This document shows, one piece after another, positions 4,794-41,812 of a stretch of DNA of 64,000 bases. A program made the translations under genes and the position numbers. Position 1 is the stretch's first letter. Each line of letters begins with the position of its first letter. Below the pieces are notes generated by a model. The model was given only the letters and a program-made list of their open reading frames with translations, did not search any database and was not told where the DNA came from. This DNA is from Epilithonimonas hominis (lineage in GTDB: Bacteria > Bacteroidota > Bacteroidia > Flavobacteriales > Weeksellaceae), in NCBI RefSeq assembly GCF_003730015.1, contig NZ_RJTU01000055.1:30056-94055 (forward strand), read 5' to 3'.

Positions 4794-7700
4794 TTATTCT
4801 TCAAGTCTTACATCAAGTCCAAGACCTTGTAACTCGTGAAGTAATACGTTGAAAGATTCTGGAATACCAGGTTCTGGCATTGCTTCACCTTTTGCGATTG
4901 CTTCATAAGTTTTTGCTCTACCAATCACGTCATCCGACTTAACAGTCAGGATCTCTCTCAAGATATTGGATGCTCCAAATGCTTCAAGAGCCCAAACCTC
5001 CATCTCTCCGAATCTCTGACCTCCGAATTGCGCTTTACCTCCTAATGGCTGCTGCGTAATCAATGAGTACGGTCCGATAGAACGTGCGTGCATCTTATCA
5101 TCTACCATGTGTCCTAACTTCAGCATATAAATCACACCAACAGTAGCTGGCTGAGTAAATCTCTCCCCTGTTCCACCATCGTAAAGGTGTGTGTTTCCGA
5201 ATTTAGGAAGTGCTGCCTGCTCGGTGTATTCGGTAATTTGATCTAAACTAGCTCCATCGAAGATCGGTGTTGCGAATTTTAGTCCAAGCTGCTTACCTGC
5301 CCATCCAAGAACAGTTTCGTAGATCTGACCAATATTCATACGGGAAGGTACCCCAAGTGGATTCAATACGATATCTACCGGTGTTCCATCCTCTAGGAAC
5401 GGCATATCTTCTTCACGAACGATTCTTGACACAATACCTTTGTTACCGTGACGACCAGCCATTTTATCACCCACATTCAGTTTACGTTTCTTAGCGATGT
5501 AAACTTTAGCTAATTTGATGATACCAGCCGGAAGCTCGTCTCCGATAGATAATGCAAATTTCTCACGGTTTTTAACCCCGGAAAGATCATTGTATTTAAT
5601 TTTATAGTTGTGAATCAATTGCTTGATCAATTCATTCTTGTCTGCATCAACAGTCCAGTCTGCGCCACTGATGTTTACATAATCCTCAACAGACTGAAGC
5701 AACTTCAAAGTAAACTTAGTTCCTTTTCCGATCATTTCTTCTTGAAGGTCATTTTTCACCCCTTGAGACGTTTTACCGGAAACCAACGTGTTTAGTTTGT
5801 CAATCAAAGTGTTTCTTAAGTCATCGAACTTAGCTTTATAAGTATTTTCGATTTCTTCCAGTTTGATTTTCTCTTCGCTTCTTTTCTTTTTGTCCTTGAT
5901 GTTTCTGGAGAACAATTTTTTGTTGATTACAACACCTCTAAGAGAAGAATCTGCTTTAAGAGAAGCATCTTTTACATCACCCGCTTTATCCCCGAAAATC
6001 GCTCTAAGAAGTTTTTCTTCCGGAGTAGGATCAGATTCACCTTTTGGTGTGATTTTCCCGATAAGGATATCGCCAGGCTTCACTTCTGCTCCGATACGGA
6101 TCATACCGTTCTCATCAAGATCTTTAGTGGCTTCTTCAGAAACGTTAGGAATATCTGCTGTCAGTTCTTCCATACCTAGTTTGGTATCACGAACTTCAAG
6201 AGAATACTCATCTACGTGGATTGAAGTAAACCAGTCCTCACGAACTACTTTTTCATTGATTACAATCGCATCCTCGAAGTTATACCCTTTCCAAGGCATG
6301 AAAGCAACTACTAAGTTTCTACCAAGAGCTAATTCTCCGTTTTCAGTTGCATAACCGTCACAAAGCACCTGTCCTTTTTCCACTGTGTCCCCCACTCTTA
6401 CGTTAGGTCTCAGTGTAATAGTTGTACTCTGGTTTGTTTTTCTGAACTTAGTTAATTTATAAGTCTTAGTTGCAGAATCGAAGTTTACCAAATCATCTTC
6501 TTCGCTTCTTTCATACTTAATAACAATTCTTTCAGCATCTACATATTCCACTACTCCATTTCCTTCTGCATTGATAAGGATTCTAGAATCTTTCGCAACT
6601 TGCTTTTCCAGACCTGTACCCACGATTGGCGCTTGTGGCTTCAATAATGGAACGGCCTGACGCATCATGTTAGAACCCATCAAAGCACGGTTCGCATCAT
6701 CATGTTCCAAGAAAGGAATCAATGAAGCGGAAATACCGGAAATCTGGTTTGGGGCAACGTCAATCAAATCTACTTGCTGAGGCTCTACTACAGGATAATC
6801 CCCATCCAAACGAGCGATAATTCTATCCGTTTCGAAGTTACCATCATCACTCAAAGCAACGTTAGCCTGAGCAATTACTCGGTTTTCTTCATCCTCCGCA
6901 TTAAGATAAATTGGCTTAGCCTGAAGATCTACTTTTCCATCCTCTACTTTTCTATAAGGTGTTTCGATGAAACCAAGGTTGTTGATTTTCGCATACATCC
7001 CAAGAGAAGAGATCAAACCGATGTTTGGTCCTTCCGGCGTTTCAATCGGACAGATACGTCCGTAGTGTGTATGGTGAACGTCACGAACCTCGAAACCTGC
7101 TCTTTCTCTTGATAAACCACCAGGTCCTAGCGCAGATAATCTACGCTTGTGCGTGATTTCTGACAATGGATTGGTCTGATCCATAAACTGAGAAAGCTGG
7201 TTAGTTCCGAAGAACGAGTTAATAACAGACGTCAAAGTCTTGGCATTAACCAAATCTACCGGTGTAAAGATTTCGTTATCTCTAACATTCATTCTTTCCT
7301 TAATAGTTCTTGCGATTCTGGAAAGACCAACACCAAACTGACCAGACAATTGCTCGCCCACAGTTTTGATACGTCTGTTAGAAAGGTGGTCAATATCATC
7401 TACCTCAGCTTTGGAATTAACCAATTCAATTAGGTGTTTTACGATTGCGATGATATCTTCCTTGGTCAGTACTTCCGTCGTTTCCGGAATATTAAGACCT
7501 AATTTTTTATTTAATCTGTAACGACCAACTTCACCCAAAGAATAACGCTGCTCAGAGAAGAATAATTTTTCAATGATTCCTCTTGCAGTTTCCTCATCCG
7601 GTGCATCAGCGTTTCTCAGCTGACGGTAGATGTACTCCACTGCTTCTTTTTCAGAGTTAGTCGGGTCTTTTTGTAGTGTATTTTGGATGATAGAGAATTC

Positions 7701-8621
7701 ATTAGAATTTTCTTTGTGAATCAGGATAGACTTAACGCCTGAATCCAAAATAATATCAAGGTGTTCTTTTTCAAGAACAGTTTCTCTATCCAAGATGATT
7801 TCGTTTCTTTCGATAGAAACTACTTCACCCGTATCTTCGTCTACGAAATCCTCGAACCAAGTGTTCAGTACTCTCGCAGCAAGAGTTCGGCCTTCTACTT
7901 TCTTAAGGGCAGCTTTGGAAACTTTCACTTCCTCAGCAAGATCGAAGATCTGAAGGATTTCCTTATCAGATTCATAACCGATTGCTCTAAGTAAAGTTGT
8001 TAAAGGTAATTTTTTCTTACGGTCGATATAGGCGTACATTACGCTGTTGATATCGGTTGTAAATTCCATCCAAGATCCTTTGAAAGGGATAATTCTTGAA
8101 TAGTAAAGTTTAGTTCCGTTGGCGTGGTAAGTCTGTCCGAAGAATACACCAGGTGAACGGTGAAGCTGCGTTACGATTACCCTTTCAGCACCATTAATGA
8201 TGAAAGATCCGCTTGGCGTCATATAAGGAACTGGACCTAGGTAAACATCTTGCACAACAGTCTGGAAATCTTCATGTTCCGGATCTGTACAATATAGTTT
8301 AAGTCTAGCTTTAAGAGGAACTGAATAAGTCAAACCTCTTTCCACACACTCATCAATAGAGTAACGTGGAGAATCTACAAGATAATCCAAAAACTCCAAT
8401 ACGAATTGGTTTCTGGAATCTGTAATTGGAAAATTTTCCTGAAATGTTTTGTAAAGCGATTCTTTTTGTCGCTCTTCAGGAAGTGTGTCTAGCTGGAAAA
8501 ATTCCTTGAAAGACTGGATTTGGATGTCCAAAAAGTCAGGAGTTTCGATTTTACCTTTTGCAGAAGAAAAGTTAATTCTCGGAGTACCTTGAACTTTAGG
8601 AGCGGCCTGTGTTTTACTCAT
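4794..8621 (-). CDS. rpoB: DNA-directed RNA polymerase subunit beta
   Basis: 1275 residues, full length for a Bacteroidetes beta subunit. The rifampicin region reads [20 protein letters not shown] followed by LSALGPGG, so the positions equivalent to E. coli D516, H526 and S531 are all wild type and a rifampicin-sensitive enzyme is expected. The C-terminal half has the conserved [10 protein letters not shown] and [20 protein letters not shown] segments that pair with beta'. The ATG at 8619-8621 has no Shine-Dalgarno, as usual in this phylum. Unlike in most bacteria it is not directly downstream of rplL: another gene, two terminators and a dedicated promoter intervene. Confidence 0.99.
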
Positions 8622-8711
8622 AAAATTATAAGAAAAATGGGTTAAAAAATATTTTGATTAAAAAAATATCAGAAAGAAGAAAGAGAAAGAGAAAAAAGAA
8701 AGACTATGATG

Positions 8712-8929
8712 TTTGGCGCTATCAGAATTAGTCTTGGTTCTTGATTCTTGATTCTTGATCTAATTTCTAACTGCAACGCCGGTATATCTTTTCACGGCGT
8801 AATGCAAAATATTTTTATTTATTTTGACGATAATGAGAATCAACATCTATAAAACACGAAACCTCTTTCAAAACTGAAAGAGTTGATATTCAATATTTTA
8901 TTGATGTATTAATAATTATTAGCGCCAAA
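8712..8929 (-). ncRNA. Candidate structured leader of the rpoBC mRNA
   Basis: The predicted 5' leader of rpoB (about 310 nt) has a perfect 10-bp complement, TTTGGCGCTA (8712-8721) with TAGCGCCAAA (8920-8929), that would close a domain of about 218 nt. Inside are a perfect 8-bp hairpin (8863-8870 with 8875-8882), a helix ATCAAC/GTTGAT around it (8839-8844 with 8882-8887, sharing one base) and a GC-rich 6-bp hairpin ACGCCG/CGGCGT (8776-8781 with 8795-8800). The closing helix begins 1-3 nt after the expected transcription start. A pyrimidine-rich tract follows before the rpoB start. Regulatory function is inference. Confidence 0.5.
8738..8758. repeat. Heptanucleotide repeat in rpoB leader
   Basis: Three perfect copies of the 7-mer TTCTTGA lie inside the rpoB leader, between the GC-rich hairpin and the closing helix. 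It has the same period as the repeat ahead of rpoC but a different sequence. Confidence 0.85.
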
Positions 8930-8936
8930 ACGAGTG

Positions 8937-8967
8937 CAAATTTAGGAAAATTAATTCGCTTTCACAA
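8937..8967 (-). promoter_or_regulatory. rpoBC promoter
   Basis: On the minus strand this reads TTG, 20 nt, TAAATTTG, an exact match to the Bacteroidetes primary-sigma consensus. The start is predicted near 8931, giving a leader of about 310 nt. The -33 element abuts the terminator of the upstream gene. Confidence 0.75.
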
Positions 8968-8968
8968 G

Positions 8969-8994
8969 TAAAAAACCATCTCCGGAGAGATGGT
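8969..8994 (-). terminator. Rho-independent terminator before the rpoB promoter
   Basis: 8-bp stem ACCATCTC/GAGATGGT with a 4-nt loop and a run of six T on the minus strand. It would end transcripts of the surface-protein gene (stop at 9327) just before the rpoB promoter. Confidence 0.8.
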
Positions 8995-9326
8995 CTGTTA
9001 TAAAGTTTAGGCTTACTGTTAAGATTATTTGCCCAAAAAAACTTAATTTTTTTTAAATATAAATCCATCTAATTAAGTTATGATGGACCTTTTAATTATA
9101 TGCAAATAAGTATTTGTAACTATTATAACATTAAGTAATTACTACAGATTGCGGTCTAAATTTGTATGCTTCATAATAGCGCTAACATCAGTGCTGACAA
9201 TCAATTTTTAAAAAATTAACTAATTTTTGCTAAACAATCATTTAACTTCGCTTTCGTTTTTACTGAAACATAGCAAATAATTTTATTGTGATAAGAATTT
9301 TTTATCAATGCTTTGTTCGTCTTTAT
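8995..9326. other. Gene-free stretch downstream of the surface-protein gene
   Basis: 330 nt of AT-rich sequence between the stop of the surface-protein gene and its terminator. No ORF, tRNA or strong hairpin is seen. A lone TAAATTTG on the plus strand near 9156 has no -33 element. Confidence 0.5.
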
Positions 9327-10550
9327 TTAATATTTAGAGATAATATACCAGTTTGTTCCATTACTCTGCACGGTTATTCCACTGTTTCCAGCTGCACCGT
9401 TTAAAGGATAATTTGTAATGCTGGCACCGTTCAAAAAAATTGGAGAATTGATGGACATTGGAATTCCGTCATAAACAATATGGTAGATTTTTCCAGGTGT
9501 ATTAGCAGCGGGAGGCAGACTGATGTTGCCAGTTGCTAAAATAGTGTAGTCTGTAGATAAAAGCATTCCATTTTTAGACGCTATATTGTTATAAGAACCT
9601 GGCAAACCTCTAAAACTGCCAAGTACTCCATTATCATCTACTACTACCGTTTTAGTAGCTGTAAATGTTTGTGTTGGTTGAGGAACTACCGTCGTAGTAG
9701 CGAGCAGGGAAGATGCTCCGCCAGGAGTGGTATAGATACTGTTAGTGGCACCGGAAACTGGTAAATTTCTAATTCTGAGTGCTCCGCCAATATCTAATGT
9801 TTCTGAAGGATTTTTAACATTAAATCCGAAAAGGCCCTGATCTGTTATTTTAAACCCATAATATGTAGCTCCGCCGGCTCCGGAATGCGGAATGATATTA
9901 AAGGAATTACTCGTGAACACGTTGGGATTATTATCAACGCTAAAAATTAGACCCATATCACCACCATTAGAAATGGAACTGAAAGAACCACCACCTAAAT
10001 TTTCTGCAAATCCGAACCAGGGGTTAACACCATTAACAATATTGCGGTAAGAGCCGTAAATCATCATCCCGTTTGTGGATCCCACAGCGTCGTAGACTGA
10101 TAAAATTCCATTGGTAGCGTTGCCGTTGACGCTCACCCTTCCCCTTTGATAAATATCCTGATTATTGGCCGTAGCCGGCTGTCCGGTTTTCTGGTTATAC
10201 CAAGGCTCCACATAATTAGCGGTAGAAGATAATTTTTGCCAAATAGTCCCGTCGAAATAATAATATCCTGCAGAAGTAACATTAATAGTTTGTCCAGCTG
10301 GAGAAGTATCCGGTAATGTGGCATACACAATGCTTCCGGTTTGAGCTGTGGTATAGTTTTTAGCGCGCAGTTGATTGCCAGTAATTCTTGGAGCTATGAT
10401 ACCATCAAGCTTCGCAGTATCAGCAGCAAATCCATTAACATCTAAAGTTGCAACTGGAGTCGTAGTGTTGATTCCAACATTACCACTTTGCCCTTGCAGG
10501 AAGTGGACAGACAGCGAAATAATTGAAATTGTTAATGTTTTTTTCATCAT
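9327..10550 (-). CDS. Exported surface protein of unknown function between rplL and rpoB
   Basis: 407 residues with an N-terminal signal peptide ending around LQGQ. The mature protein opens with SGNVGINTTTPVATLDVNG, a segment shared by many flavobacterial surface or tail-fibre-like proteins, followed by Gly/Asn/Thr/Ser-rich sequence likely to form repetitive beta structure (YYYFDGTIWQKL). No C-terminal T9SS sorting domain is obvious and no enzyme motif was found. It has its own promoter and terminator, so it is a stand-alone unit inserted in the rplL-rpoB junction. Two consecutive ATG codons (10550 and 10547) could each be the start. The surface location is inferred; the function is unknown. 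Confidence 0.8.
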   Translation of the reverse strand: MMKKTLTISIISLSVHFLQGQSGNVGINTTTPVATLDVNGFAADTAKLDGIIAPRITGNQLRAKNYTTAQTGSIVYATLPDTSPAGQTINVTSAGYYYFDGTIWQKLSSTANYVEPWYNQKTGQPATANNQDIYQRGRVSVNGNATNGILSVYDAVGSTNGMMIYGSYRNIVNGVNPWFGFAENLGGGSFSSISNGGDMGLIFSVDNNPNVFTSNSFNIIPHSGAGGATYYGFKITDQGLFGFNVKNPSETLDIGGALRIRNLPVSGATNSIYTTPGGASSLLATTTVVPQPTQTFTATKTVVVDDNGVLGSFRGLPGSYNNIASKNGMLLSTDYTILATGNISLPPAANTPGKIYHIVYDGIPMSINSPIFLNGASITNYPLNGAAGNSGITVQSNGTNWYIISKY

Positions 10551-10764: not shown

Positions 10765-11133
10765 TTATTTCAATTCTACTTCAGCACCAGCTTCTTCAAG
10801 TTGCTTTTTAAGCGCTTCTGCTTCGTCTTTAGATACACCTTGCTTGATTGGAGCAGGAGCACCATCTACGATATCTTTAGCTTCCTTAAGACCAGCACCA
10901 GTTAAATCTTTTACCAATTTAACGATAGCCAATTTAGAAGCACCTGCAGACTTAAGAATTACGTCGAATTCAGTCTTTTCTTCAGCAGCTTCACCTGCAC
11001 CACCTGCAGCAACTACTACAGCAGCAGCAGCTGGCTCAATTCCGTACTCATCCTTAAGGATAGCAGCTAATTCGTTTACGTCTTTTACTGTTAAGTTTAC
11101 TAGCGTTTCAGCTAAATTTTTTAAATCTGACAT
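10765..11133 (-). CDS. rplL: Large ribosomal subunit protein bL12
   Basis: 122 residues, the usual length of L7/L12. It has the N-terminal dimerisation/L10-binding helices ([19 protein letters not shown]), an Ala/Gly-rich hinge near residues 38-50 and the compact C-terminal domain that contacts elongation factors ([20 protein letters not shown]). It is the last gene of the rplKAJL operon, 48 nt after rplJ, and is followed by a strong terminator. Confidence 0.98.
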
Positions 11134-20076: not shown

Positions 20077-20463
20077 ATTTTAAAAGAGAATTTCAGAGAA
20101 ATTTTTTAATTCATCTTTGAACAGATAATAAATGCATAGAATTTTCTAAACATTAGAAAAAGCCTTTAAGTTTTCGTAAACGTGATTGTGCTCAGAAAAA
20201 GGATTATTAAAATTAACGATATTTTGTTGAAACTTCGGAAGAATGACAAATTATAATATATACTTATTCTTTTGCTTAATATTTGGGAAGCTTCCATTCA
20301 TAAAAGTTGGCATAATATCCACAATTCGACAAACTCAGGGACACAGCTCGAATACTAACCGCAATTCTTTAACATTGTCAGGTTCAGAATGTAGAAACTG
20401 TTATAAGTGAAAGAGATAGGTCTATTCTATTATTATGCAAATGTTGTTGGGTTGACAAAGCCC
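20077..20463. other. Gene-free stretch between rpsU promoter and hairpin repeat
   Basis: No ORF with coding character is seen. A short segment near 20322-20350 (TTCGACAAACTCAGGGACA) resembles a degenerate copy of a common bacterial intergenic repeat. Nothing else is recognisable. Confidence 0.4.
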
Positions 20464-20542
20464 TAGCCCCGATAGGAACGGCATCCTTTTCCTTTTTTTG
20501 CTAAAAAAGAAAAAGATATAGTGGATAGCGGGATTAAGCTTC
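20464..20542 (+). repeat. Hairpin repeat element, copy A
   Basis: An intergenic element that recurs at 41728-41812. Shared order: AGCCC, GAT, CGGCATCCTTTT, a long T/A hairpin, AAAGATATAG, GG, AGC, GG, and GCTTC or GCTCC. Outer arms pair as CCCG/CGGG here and as CCTG/CAGG in the other copy, a compensatory change. It lies downstream of pdhB in the opposite orientation to the gene. Confidence 0.75.
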
Positions 20543-41668: not shown

Positions 41669-41727
41669 TATTGTAATGGTTAATTGTTAATGTTGAATGG
41701 TTATCATCTAACCATAGAATTGCTCAA

Positions 41728-41812
41728 TAGCCCTGATGGTAGCGGCATCCTTTTGCTTTTTTTTCATATATGAAAAAGCAAAAGATATAGCGGTCAGCAG
41801 GTTCTCGGCTCC
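41728..41812 (+). repeat. Hairpin repeat element, copy B, between cysD and cysN
   Basis: Second copy of the element at 20464-20542. The central hairpin is a perfect inverted repeat, CTTTTGCTTTTT with AAAAAGCAAAAG, and the outer arms pair as CCTG/CAGG. It occupies most of the cysD-cysN gap, touches the cysD stop codon, and lies antisense to the operon. Confidence 0.75.

What the first reader, a model, noticed from the sequence alone, without database searches (positions are those of the whole stretch)
8712..8931. Structured leader RNA of rpoBC closed by a 10-bp GC-rich helix
The consensus promoter at 8937-8967 predicts a leader of about 310 nt for rpoB. Within it a perfect 10-nt complement (8712-8721 with 8920-8929) would fold the first 220 nt into one closed domain, with the mRNA 5' end in the helix. 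Inside are a perfect 8-bp hairpin, a helix around it and a 6-bp GC hairpin, in otherwise AT-rich sequence. Such a domain ahead of the polymerase genes, in a genome where rpoB is uncoupled from rplL, could be an autoregulatory element (for feedback by RNA polymerase or NusG).
Basis: partly seen in the sequence, partly recalled or inferred. Interest (0 to 1): 0.75.

Follow-up and report, generated by a model that had tools for sequence, protein, structure and literature searches.

The report
Folded RNA switch ahead of rpoB
In Epilithonimonas, Chryseobacterium and their relatives the RNA polymerase gene rpoB is preceded by a conserved RNA that is predicted to fold into a switch, which would set how much polymerase is made.

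Summary
The 310-nt rpoB leader (window 8935-8622, - strand) contains every helix named, including the 10-nt complement, and it is conserved. An invariant hairpin, P3 (8805-8773, loop GUGAAAAGAUAUACC), precedes rpoB in 61 of 61 relatives fetched by their rpoB. Its model matches 25 of 33 sampled genera of the family (one chance match removed) and no genome of other families in two samples. Rfam has no match at its thresholds.

P3's flanks pair with two segments just before the start codon (X:D2, Y:D1), giving a three-way junction. On an rpoB tree Y:D1 has 49 double changes that keep the pair and 11 that do not.

D1 and D2 also pair with each other, weakly. In two divergent lineages P3's 3' strand is half of a terminator-like hairpin. 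I infer an attenuation switch that reads P3. Regulator, direction and 5' end are untested; feedback by RNA polymerase or NusG is possible, not shown.

The parts
8937..8967 (-). predicted promoter of the leader (TTG, then TAAATTTG)
   Evidence: sequence; pattern at the same place in 55 of 61 leaders; start not mapped
8973..8996 (-). terminator-like hairpin just upstream of the promoter, likely separating rpoB from upstream transcription
8920..8930 (-). P1a, near the predicted mRNA 5' end; complementary to P1b and, less well, to K
8843..8907 (-). P2, hairpin 8882-8863 inside an outer helix 8907-8896/8854-8843
   Evidence: four inner pairs in RNAalifold, all with compensatory changes
8821..8829 (-). 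K, alternative partner of P1a (8931-8923), paired with it in the fold of the full leader
   Evidence: weaker support than P1
8805..8816 (-). X, AAAAAUAUUUUG, 5' flank of P3; pairs with D2
   Evidence: (pair I8)
8773..8805 (-). P3, invariant hairpin; loop region GUGAAAAGAUAUACC at 8795-8781
8764..8771 (-). Y, GUUAGAAA, 3' flank of P3; pairs with D1
8700..8735 (-). P4, purine-rich/pyrimidine-rich hairpin with P1b in its apical loop
8712..8721 (-). P1b, UAGCGCCAAA, complementary to P1a
8668..8675 (-). D1, UUUCUGAU; pairs with Y; its end overlaps the 5' arm of P5
8648..8670 (-). P5, weak D1:D2 hairpin GAUAUUUU/AAAAUAUU, U's follow (8647-8644)
   Evidence: consensus fold; about -1.6 kcal/mol; 0 of 162 core folds
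8645..8656 (-). D2, CAAAAUAUUUUU; pairs with X or with D1
4794..8621 (-). rpoB, the gene behind the leader
   Evidence: family-wide protein matches

Best explanation
The rpoB leader is a conserved RNA that is predicted to fold with an invariant hairpin (P3) in a three-way junction and likely works as an attenuator: an unknown factor would read the P3 loop and so decide whether RNA polymerase continues into rpoBC. Shown by sequence comparison: P3 and its loop are conserved ahead of rpoB; P3's flanks X and Y are complementary to D2 and D1, and Y:D1 covaries strongly; D1 and D2 are also complementary to each other (P5), so X:D2 and P5 exclude one another; the leader's 5' segment P1a is complementary to the loop of P4 and to K beside P3. 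Inferred: the junction is the read-through form, because it keeps D2 and its U's out of P5, and because in two divergent leaders a terminator-like hairpin uses P3's own 3' strand. Inferred: pairing of the mRNA 5' end with the P4 loop tunes the switch. Unknown: the regulator (RNA polymerase, NusG, a ribosomal protein and a small molecule are all open) and whether its binding turns expression up or down.
For: P3 ahead of rpoB in 61 of 61 leaders fetched by rpoB; of 65 leaders fetched by rpoB 62 have the loop exactly. Y:D1: 898 of 1152 cells paired in 128 distinct pairs of segments against a shuffle mean of 762, maximum 802 of 2000; on a 117-tip rpoB tree 49 double changes keep the pair and 11 do not, against 5-12 and 19-34 for slid registers. 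139 of 162 distinct cores hold X:D2, Y:D1 and P3 together in their own minimum-energy fold. X changes opposite U are A to G in 27 cases against 3 transversions, three rewritten X set aside. X, D2 and D1 are rewritten together in L120 and L242, keeping X:D2 and D1:D2 (by eye). Terminator-like hairpins made with P3's 3' strand: -25.7 kcal/mol followed by T8 in L121, -15.8 followed by GA and T6 in L155.
Against: P5 is weak: mean -1.6 kcal/mol in 58 leaders, no G-C pair in the window, in none of 162 core folds and 12 of 162 leader folds, and the terminator scan does not list it. RNAalifold on 55 leaders chooses P5 and P1 and contains neither X:D2 nor Y:D1. With 134 nt of upstream leader added, only 104 of 162 folds keep all three junction helices. 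X and D2 are nearly invariant, so X:D2 has little covariation outside a few leaders. Y:D1 also shows 107 single changes that break or leave a mispair, against 48 that keep it. The strong hairpins come from two lineages, both metagenome assemblies. No ligand, no mapped start, no expression data.
Confidence: 0.5

Rival explanations
1. Rho-dependent attenuation: P4 hides a G-poor pyrimidine tract between P1b and D1; when the junction opens, the tract would become a Rho loading site and transcription would stop before rpoB.
For: The 3' strand of P4 is 55% T, 23% C, 16% A and 6% G over 120 leaders, median 45 nt; P5 is too weak to be a usual intrinsic terminator.
Against: Leaders such as L189 have almost no such tract but keep P3, X, Y, D1 and D2; Rho in these bacteria was not examined.
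Confidence: 0.2
2. Feedback by the polymerase machinery: free RNA polymerase or NusG binds the leader and represses rpoBC.
For: P3 was found only ahead of rpoB, which fits a sensor of the gene's own product; one strong copy in the own genome.
Against: No computation here points to a regulator, and the divergent terminator-like hairpins fit better with the P3 form as the read-through form.
Confidence: 0.2
3. The fold controls mRNA stability or translation rather than transcription: pairing of the 5' end (P1) and the compact junction protect the messenger or shape the start region.
For: P1a starts within a few nucleotides of the predicted start and is rewritten compensatorily; the junction ends about 22 nt before the AUG (coordinates).
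Against: The stretch next to the AUG is outside X:D2 and outside P5 alike, so the two forms do not differ in exposing it; P1 is missing in some genera that keep P3 and the junction.
Confidence: 0.2
4. The conserved element is a translated upstream peptide (TTG CAY TAC NNN GTG AAA AGA TAT ACC NNN GTT GCA ...), with ribosome stalling as the signal.
For: The frame is open through the element in the window, and the first variable position is C/T in a CAY codon, which is synonymous.
Against: The two other free codons pair with each other and change amino acid; TAC, GTG, AAA, AGA and TAT never vary in 53 distinct elements, and ACC varies once, in its second base. L003, L018 and L046 lose 2 nt right after the hairpin.
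Confidence: 0.03

Closest known systems
E. coli rplJL-rpoBC attenuator and the L10 leader (Rfam L10_leader; recalled)
   Same: Both control rpoBC or its operon from a structured RNA in or near the rplL-rpoB region; outgroup genomes here have a hairpin with T's in that gap.
   Different: Here the leader has its own predicted promoter and an invariant P3 in a three-way junction; no Rfam family, L10_leader included, reaches its threshold.
Junction riboswitches with transcription-terminator platforms, such as the purine and TPP types (recalled)
   Same: An invariant loop in a multi-helix junction whose closing strands also take part in an exclusive hairpin.
   Different: Other sequence and topology, not a metabolite gene, weak platform hairpin in most members, ligand unknown, 5' end complementary to a hairpin loop.
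Flavo-1 RNA (Rfam RF01705)
   Same: Structured RNA of the same bacteria; two copies in this window.
   Different: Annotated as an sRNA gene family; no match in the rpoB leader.

Membership tests
Any family of Rfam 15 | covariance-model score at or above the gathering threshold | tested here: not met
   Window and ten related loci: no match in the leader. Below threshold the best is snoZ13_snr52, E 0.061, 23.3 bits against 47.
Cis-regulatory structured leader RNA | conserved position ahead of one gene | tested here: met
   61 of 61 leaders fetched by rpoB; of 80 contigs listed by pattern 76 have rpoB 111-262 nt downstream and 4 end too early to tell.
Cis-regulatory structured leader RNA | helices kept by compensatory change | tested here: met
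   Y:D1 and P3 on a tree; P1 and P2; P1 rewrites.
Cis-regulatory structured leader RNA | effect on expression of the gene | not testable with these tools
   needs reporter or RNA-seq data
Intrinsic-terminator attenuator | GC-rich stem followed by a T run, exclusive with another fold | tested here: inconclusive
   Window P5: no G-C pair, about -1.6 kcal/mol, not listed by the scan. L121: -25.7 kcal/mol then T8 and L155: -15.8 kcal/mol, though the scan does not list L121's, its loop being longer than the scan allows.
Riboswitch | direct binding of a small molecule | not testable with these tools
   no ligand data
Autoregulatory leader read by RNA polymerase or NusG | binding of the gene product or NusG and feedback on expression | not testable with these tools
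   no computation here distinguishes the regulator

The most novel reading that the evidence does not exclude
This is an RNA sensor dedicated to RNA polymerase supply: the P3 loop binds free core polymerase (or NusG), the three-way junction relays that to a stop at the leader's end, and the mRNA's own 5' end docks into a hairpin loop as a second input, giving a clade-specific RNA feedback loop on polymerase itself.
Probability: 0.2. Interest if true: 0.88.

Novelty: new variant of a known kind. Interest (0 to 1): 0.72.

Why it matters
How bacteria far from E. coli set their RNA polymerase level is, to my knowledge, little explored. Here a large clade (Chryseobacterium, Kaistella, Epilithonimonas, Elizabethkingia, Riemerella and others) carries a conserved leader on rpoBC with a defined recognition loop and defined helices, so control of polymerase supply becomes testable with point mutations. 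If a protein or metabolite is found to read P3, it would be a new class of RNA control over the transcription machinery.

Tried and rejected
Rejected or dropped. Peptide-coding explanation: no synonymous variation except CAY, and indels just after the hairpin. Ribosomal-RNA mimicry of the P3 loop: a recalled likeness to 23S rRNA was tried with a pattern search in the own genome, which found only the leader and one other place (the assembly may lack rRNA copies). Wider regulon: the seven weak second or single hits looked at (E 0.015-0.097) do not carry the P3 loop; three of them are one homologous, apparently coding site. Partial extra copies exist in G004 and G019. Pairing of the P3 loop AAAAGAUAU with AUAUUUUUU was considered and dropped because L120 does not keep it. 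P1 as a simple closing stem was rejected for the full-length fold. L122 was too divergent for me to assign X, D1 and D2.

Literature. Seven answered searches listed no paper on this leader; I saw listings only, and for PMC9723704 also passages. The library lacks most subscription papers, so I claim absence only for these searches.

Limits of the statistics. The permutations do not control relatedness; one search uses a tree. The P1 helix finder counts G-U pairs, so its shuffled control also reaches 8 pairs in 207 of 775 cases; the mean scores, 23.1 against 13.8, compare better, and for the 32 non-canonical arms 21.0 native against 14.8 with 3' regions of canonical leaders (217 of 640 of those crosses reach 8 pairs). 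Only 46 of 138 P4 segments beat all ten of their chimeras, and 15 of 147 P1a:K pairs and 30 of 147 P1 pairs match or beat the best of 20 chimeras, since most leaders share the same arms. Selection: contigs and the script sets were found by the loop GTGAAAAGATATA, so they cannot show its variation; the 65 leaders fetched by rpoB can. Rows dropped: 6 of 61 leaders without the promoter pattern were left out of alignment A1; 7 of 171 distinct leaders without the exact D2 pattern were left out (L003 second copy, L120, L121, L122, L155, L242, L258), some of them the most divergent; L120, L121, L155 and L242 were then read by eye or folded singly. I did not check for each of the 204 matches that rpoB follows.

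Full report
WHAT IS THERE. The window's - strand carries rpoB at 8621-4794. Upstream come a predicted promoter (8967-8937), a terminator-like hairpin (8996-8973), a 407-aa ORF without a Pfam match (9327-10550) and an ORF that reads as rplL (10765-11133), then L10, L1, L11 and NusG. The leader between predicted start and AUG is about 310 nt and folds to -69.6 kcal/mol against -45.1 for shuffles (z -5.3). In Flavobacterium psychrophilum mean and median 5' UTRs are 65 and 24 bp (PMC9723704, a passage seen), so this leader is long by that measure.

CONSERVATION. 21 of 23 same-genus genomes have an rpoB match and all 21 carry the leader; the other two gave only short matches elsewhere. Of 246 family genomes 242 have an rpoB match. 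From these I fetched 40 upstream regions of ten other genera: 39 hold GTGAAAAGATATACC exactly and one differs by a base. A covariance model of the 57-nt P3 element (R1, from 53 distinct segments) matches 204 of 242 family genomes and 26 of 33 genera. One of these, G136, the only match of its genus, is not a P3, which leaves 203 genomes and 25 genera. In an order sample the model matches 48 of 296, all in the own family; in a phylum sample 7 of 296, all in the own family. The own genome has one strong match (E 3e-16), the next at E 3.45. Named carriers (80 of 117 listed, scan stopped at its limit) include Epilithonimonas, Chryseobacterium, Kaistella, Halpernia, Riemerella, Elizabethkingia, Bergeyella, Moheibacter, Cloacibacterium and Soonwooa. 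In 76 of these 80 the rpoB start lies 111-262 nt downstream of the element; the other four loci show no rpoB hit on the held stretch.

GENOMES WITHOUT IT. Genera without a P3 match are g8, g12, g16, g18, g21, g28, g29 and g33 (g12 has no rpoB match, and the region of g33 was not looked at). I looked at 23 rplL-rpoB gaps from six of these genera and nine other families. They are mostly short, and 15 of 23 match a pattern for a hairpin GGTTTAGRCC...GGTCTAAACC followed by T's; by eye four more have it (L127, L128, L138, L143), and L136, L139, L144 and L145 do not.

P3. The element reads GCAYUAC-NNN-GUGAAAAGAUAUACC-NNN'-GUUGC. NNN and NNN' vary together (GCC/GGY, GCU/AGC, GUC/GAU, ACC/GGU, ACU/AGU); some members keep a mismatch at the first NNN position, for example UCC/GGC. 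On the rpoB tree the three variable pairs have 9 double changes that keep the pair and 6 that do not. In the 65 leaders fetched by rpoB rather than by the loop, the loop is exact in 62, ends in AUC in two and in AAC in one (a second copy in L003 ends in AAG).

THE JUNCTION. The 5' flank of P3 (X, AAAAAUAUUUUG, 8816-8805) is complementary over 12 nt to D2 (CAAAAUAUUUUU, 8656-8645). The 3' flank (Y, GUUAGAAA, 8771-8764) is complementary to D1 (UUUCUGAU, 8675-8668). The unconstrained fold of the window leader contains both helices, mean pair probabilities high for Y:D1 (0.91-1.0) and 0.30-0.98 for X:D2. 139 of 162 distinct cores hold X:D2, Y:D1 and P3 together in their own minimum-energy fold, and 104 of 162 when 134 nt of upstream leader are added. 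Y:D1 has the best evidence in this report. Among 128 distinct pairs of segments 898 of 1152 cells (positions 4-12) are standard pairs, against a mean of 762 (sd 10.6, maximum 802) in 2000 shuffles. On a 117-tip rpoB tree (positions 1-9) 49 branches change both sides and keep the pair and 11 do not; 48 single changes keep it and 107 break it or fall on a mispair; slid registers give 5-12 kept and 19-34 not kept among double changes. Rewritten examples are GUUAAACAA:UUGUUUAAU (L189), UUAGUAAG:CUUACUAA (L267) and GUUAGACU:AGUCUGAU (L266), all read. In X, changes at inner positions opposite U are A to G in 27 cases, A to T in two and A to C in one, three rewritten X set aside.

ALTERNATIVES. D1 and D2 are also complementary to each other (P5, GAUAUUUU/AAAAUAUU, then U's), with loops of about 5 to 23 nt in alignment A1. 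RNAalifold on 55 leaders chooses P5, P1, P2 and P3 and neither X:D2 nor Y:D1; 11 of its 26 pairs have a compensatory change, none of them in P5. D2 cannot be in P5 and in X:D2 at once. In L120 all three strands are rewritten (X UUUUUGCA, D2 UGCAAAAAU, D1 AUUUUUG) and both pairings survive; L242 does the same around AAAUUAA (by eye). P5 is weak: -1.6 kcal/mol on average in 58 leaders, -10.2 at best in L051 where a GC-rich insert sits in its loop; it is in none of 162 core folds and 12 of 162 leader folds. In L121 the 3' strand of P3 pairs downstream into a -25.7 kcal/mol hairpin followed by eight T's; in L155 part of that strand forms a -15.8 kcal/mol hairpin followed by GA and six T's. In both, P3 and the hairpin compete. 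This is the main reason for proposing attenuation. The terminator scan does not list the L121 hairpin, whose loop is longer than it allows, nor P5.

P1 AND P4. 32 of 155 have a 5' arm other than TTTGGCGC, and 23 of the 32 still pair over 8 or more: TTTTGGGCT/AGCCCAAAA, TGTTTGAAGC/GCTTCAAACA, AAGTTATCCGTTG/TAACGGATAACTT, TTTGGTGCAA/TTGCACCAAA, ATTTTGGCACA/TGTGCCAAAAT, TTTTGGCGTTA/TAACGCCAAAA. But the 3' arm lies in the apical loop of hairpin P4, whose flanks also stay complementary while they vary (by eye; -5.87 kcal/mol native, -3.47 chimeras, -2.73 shuffled, n = 138). P1 is thus a 5'-end-to-loop pseudoknot or an alternative to P4. P1a has a second partner, K, just 5' of X (native -9.70 against a permutation mean of -8.14, 0 of 5000 permutations as good, relatedness not controlled). 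P1, P4 and the promoter are dispensable: L070-L072 and L077 show neither the promoter nor the P1b pattern, and L189 has no P4 and no P1b but keeps X, P3, Y, D1 and D2. The core is X-P3-Y ... D1-D2.

MECHANISM. I commit to attenuation. The junction keeps D2 and its U's out of P5; opening it, under control of whatever reads P3, would let the polymerase stop about 22 nt before rpoB. Rho acting on the pyrimidine strand of P4 (6% G, 23% C, 55% T over 120 leaders) is a close rival. Which factor binds, and the sign of the response, cannot be had from sequence.

KNOWN OR NEW. No Rfam model reaches its threshold in the leader (best weaker match E 0.061 to a eukaryotic snoRNA), and seven literature searches listed no paper on it. 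It works like known attenuation leaders and switch RNAs but passes no membership test that I could run, so I file it as a new variant of a known kind. Against my first, returned submission the odds of the most novel reading went from 0.22 to 0.20, because the consensus fold lacks the junction helices and that had not been stated.

Noticed in passing
L123-L134, L136-L146 (rplL-rpoB gaps of genera and families without P3): A hairpin GGTTTAGRCC...GGTCTAAACC followed by T's stands between rplL and rpoB in 15 of 23 by pattern and 19 of 23 by eye; probably the older rplL-rpoB attenuator. A similar hairpin remains in the P3-bearing L070-L072 and L077.
   Followed up: partly
L031 / G004:C39:12057-12774: A second copy of the leader followed by broken rpoB fragments about 8 kb upstream of the intact gene; not mended.
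   Followed up: no
L003 / G019:C1:1237524-1237588: A second, partial copy of the P3 element about 740 nt upstream of the main leader copy.
   Followed up: no
window 20461-20539 (+) and 41725-41808 (+): Two Flavo-1 RNAs (Rfam RF01705) above threshold.
   Followed up: no
window 9327-10550 (-): A 407-aa ORF with no Pfam match is inserted between rplL and rpoB; in several relatives other sequence lies at this place.
   Followed up: partly
L048, L051 (P5 loop): A GC-rich palindromic insert sits in the P5 loop of two related genomes and leaves both P5 arms intact.
   Followed up: no
window 8768-8728 (-): AAGAATCAAGAATCAAGAACCAAG-type repeats in the 5' strand of P4 have short matches elsewhere in several same-genus genomes; possibly a dispersed simple repeat.
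   Followed up: no
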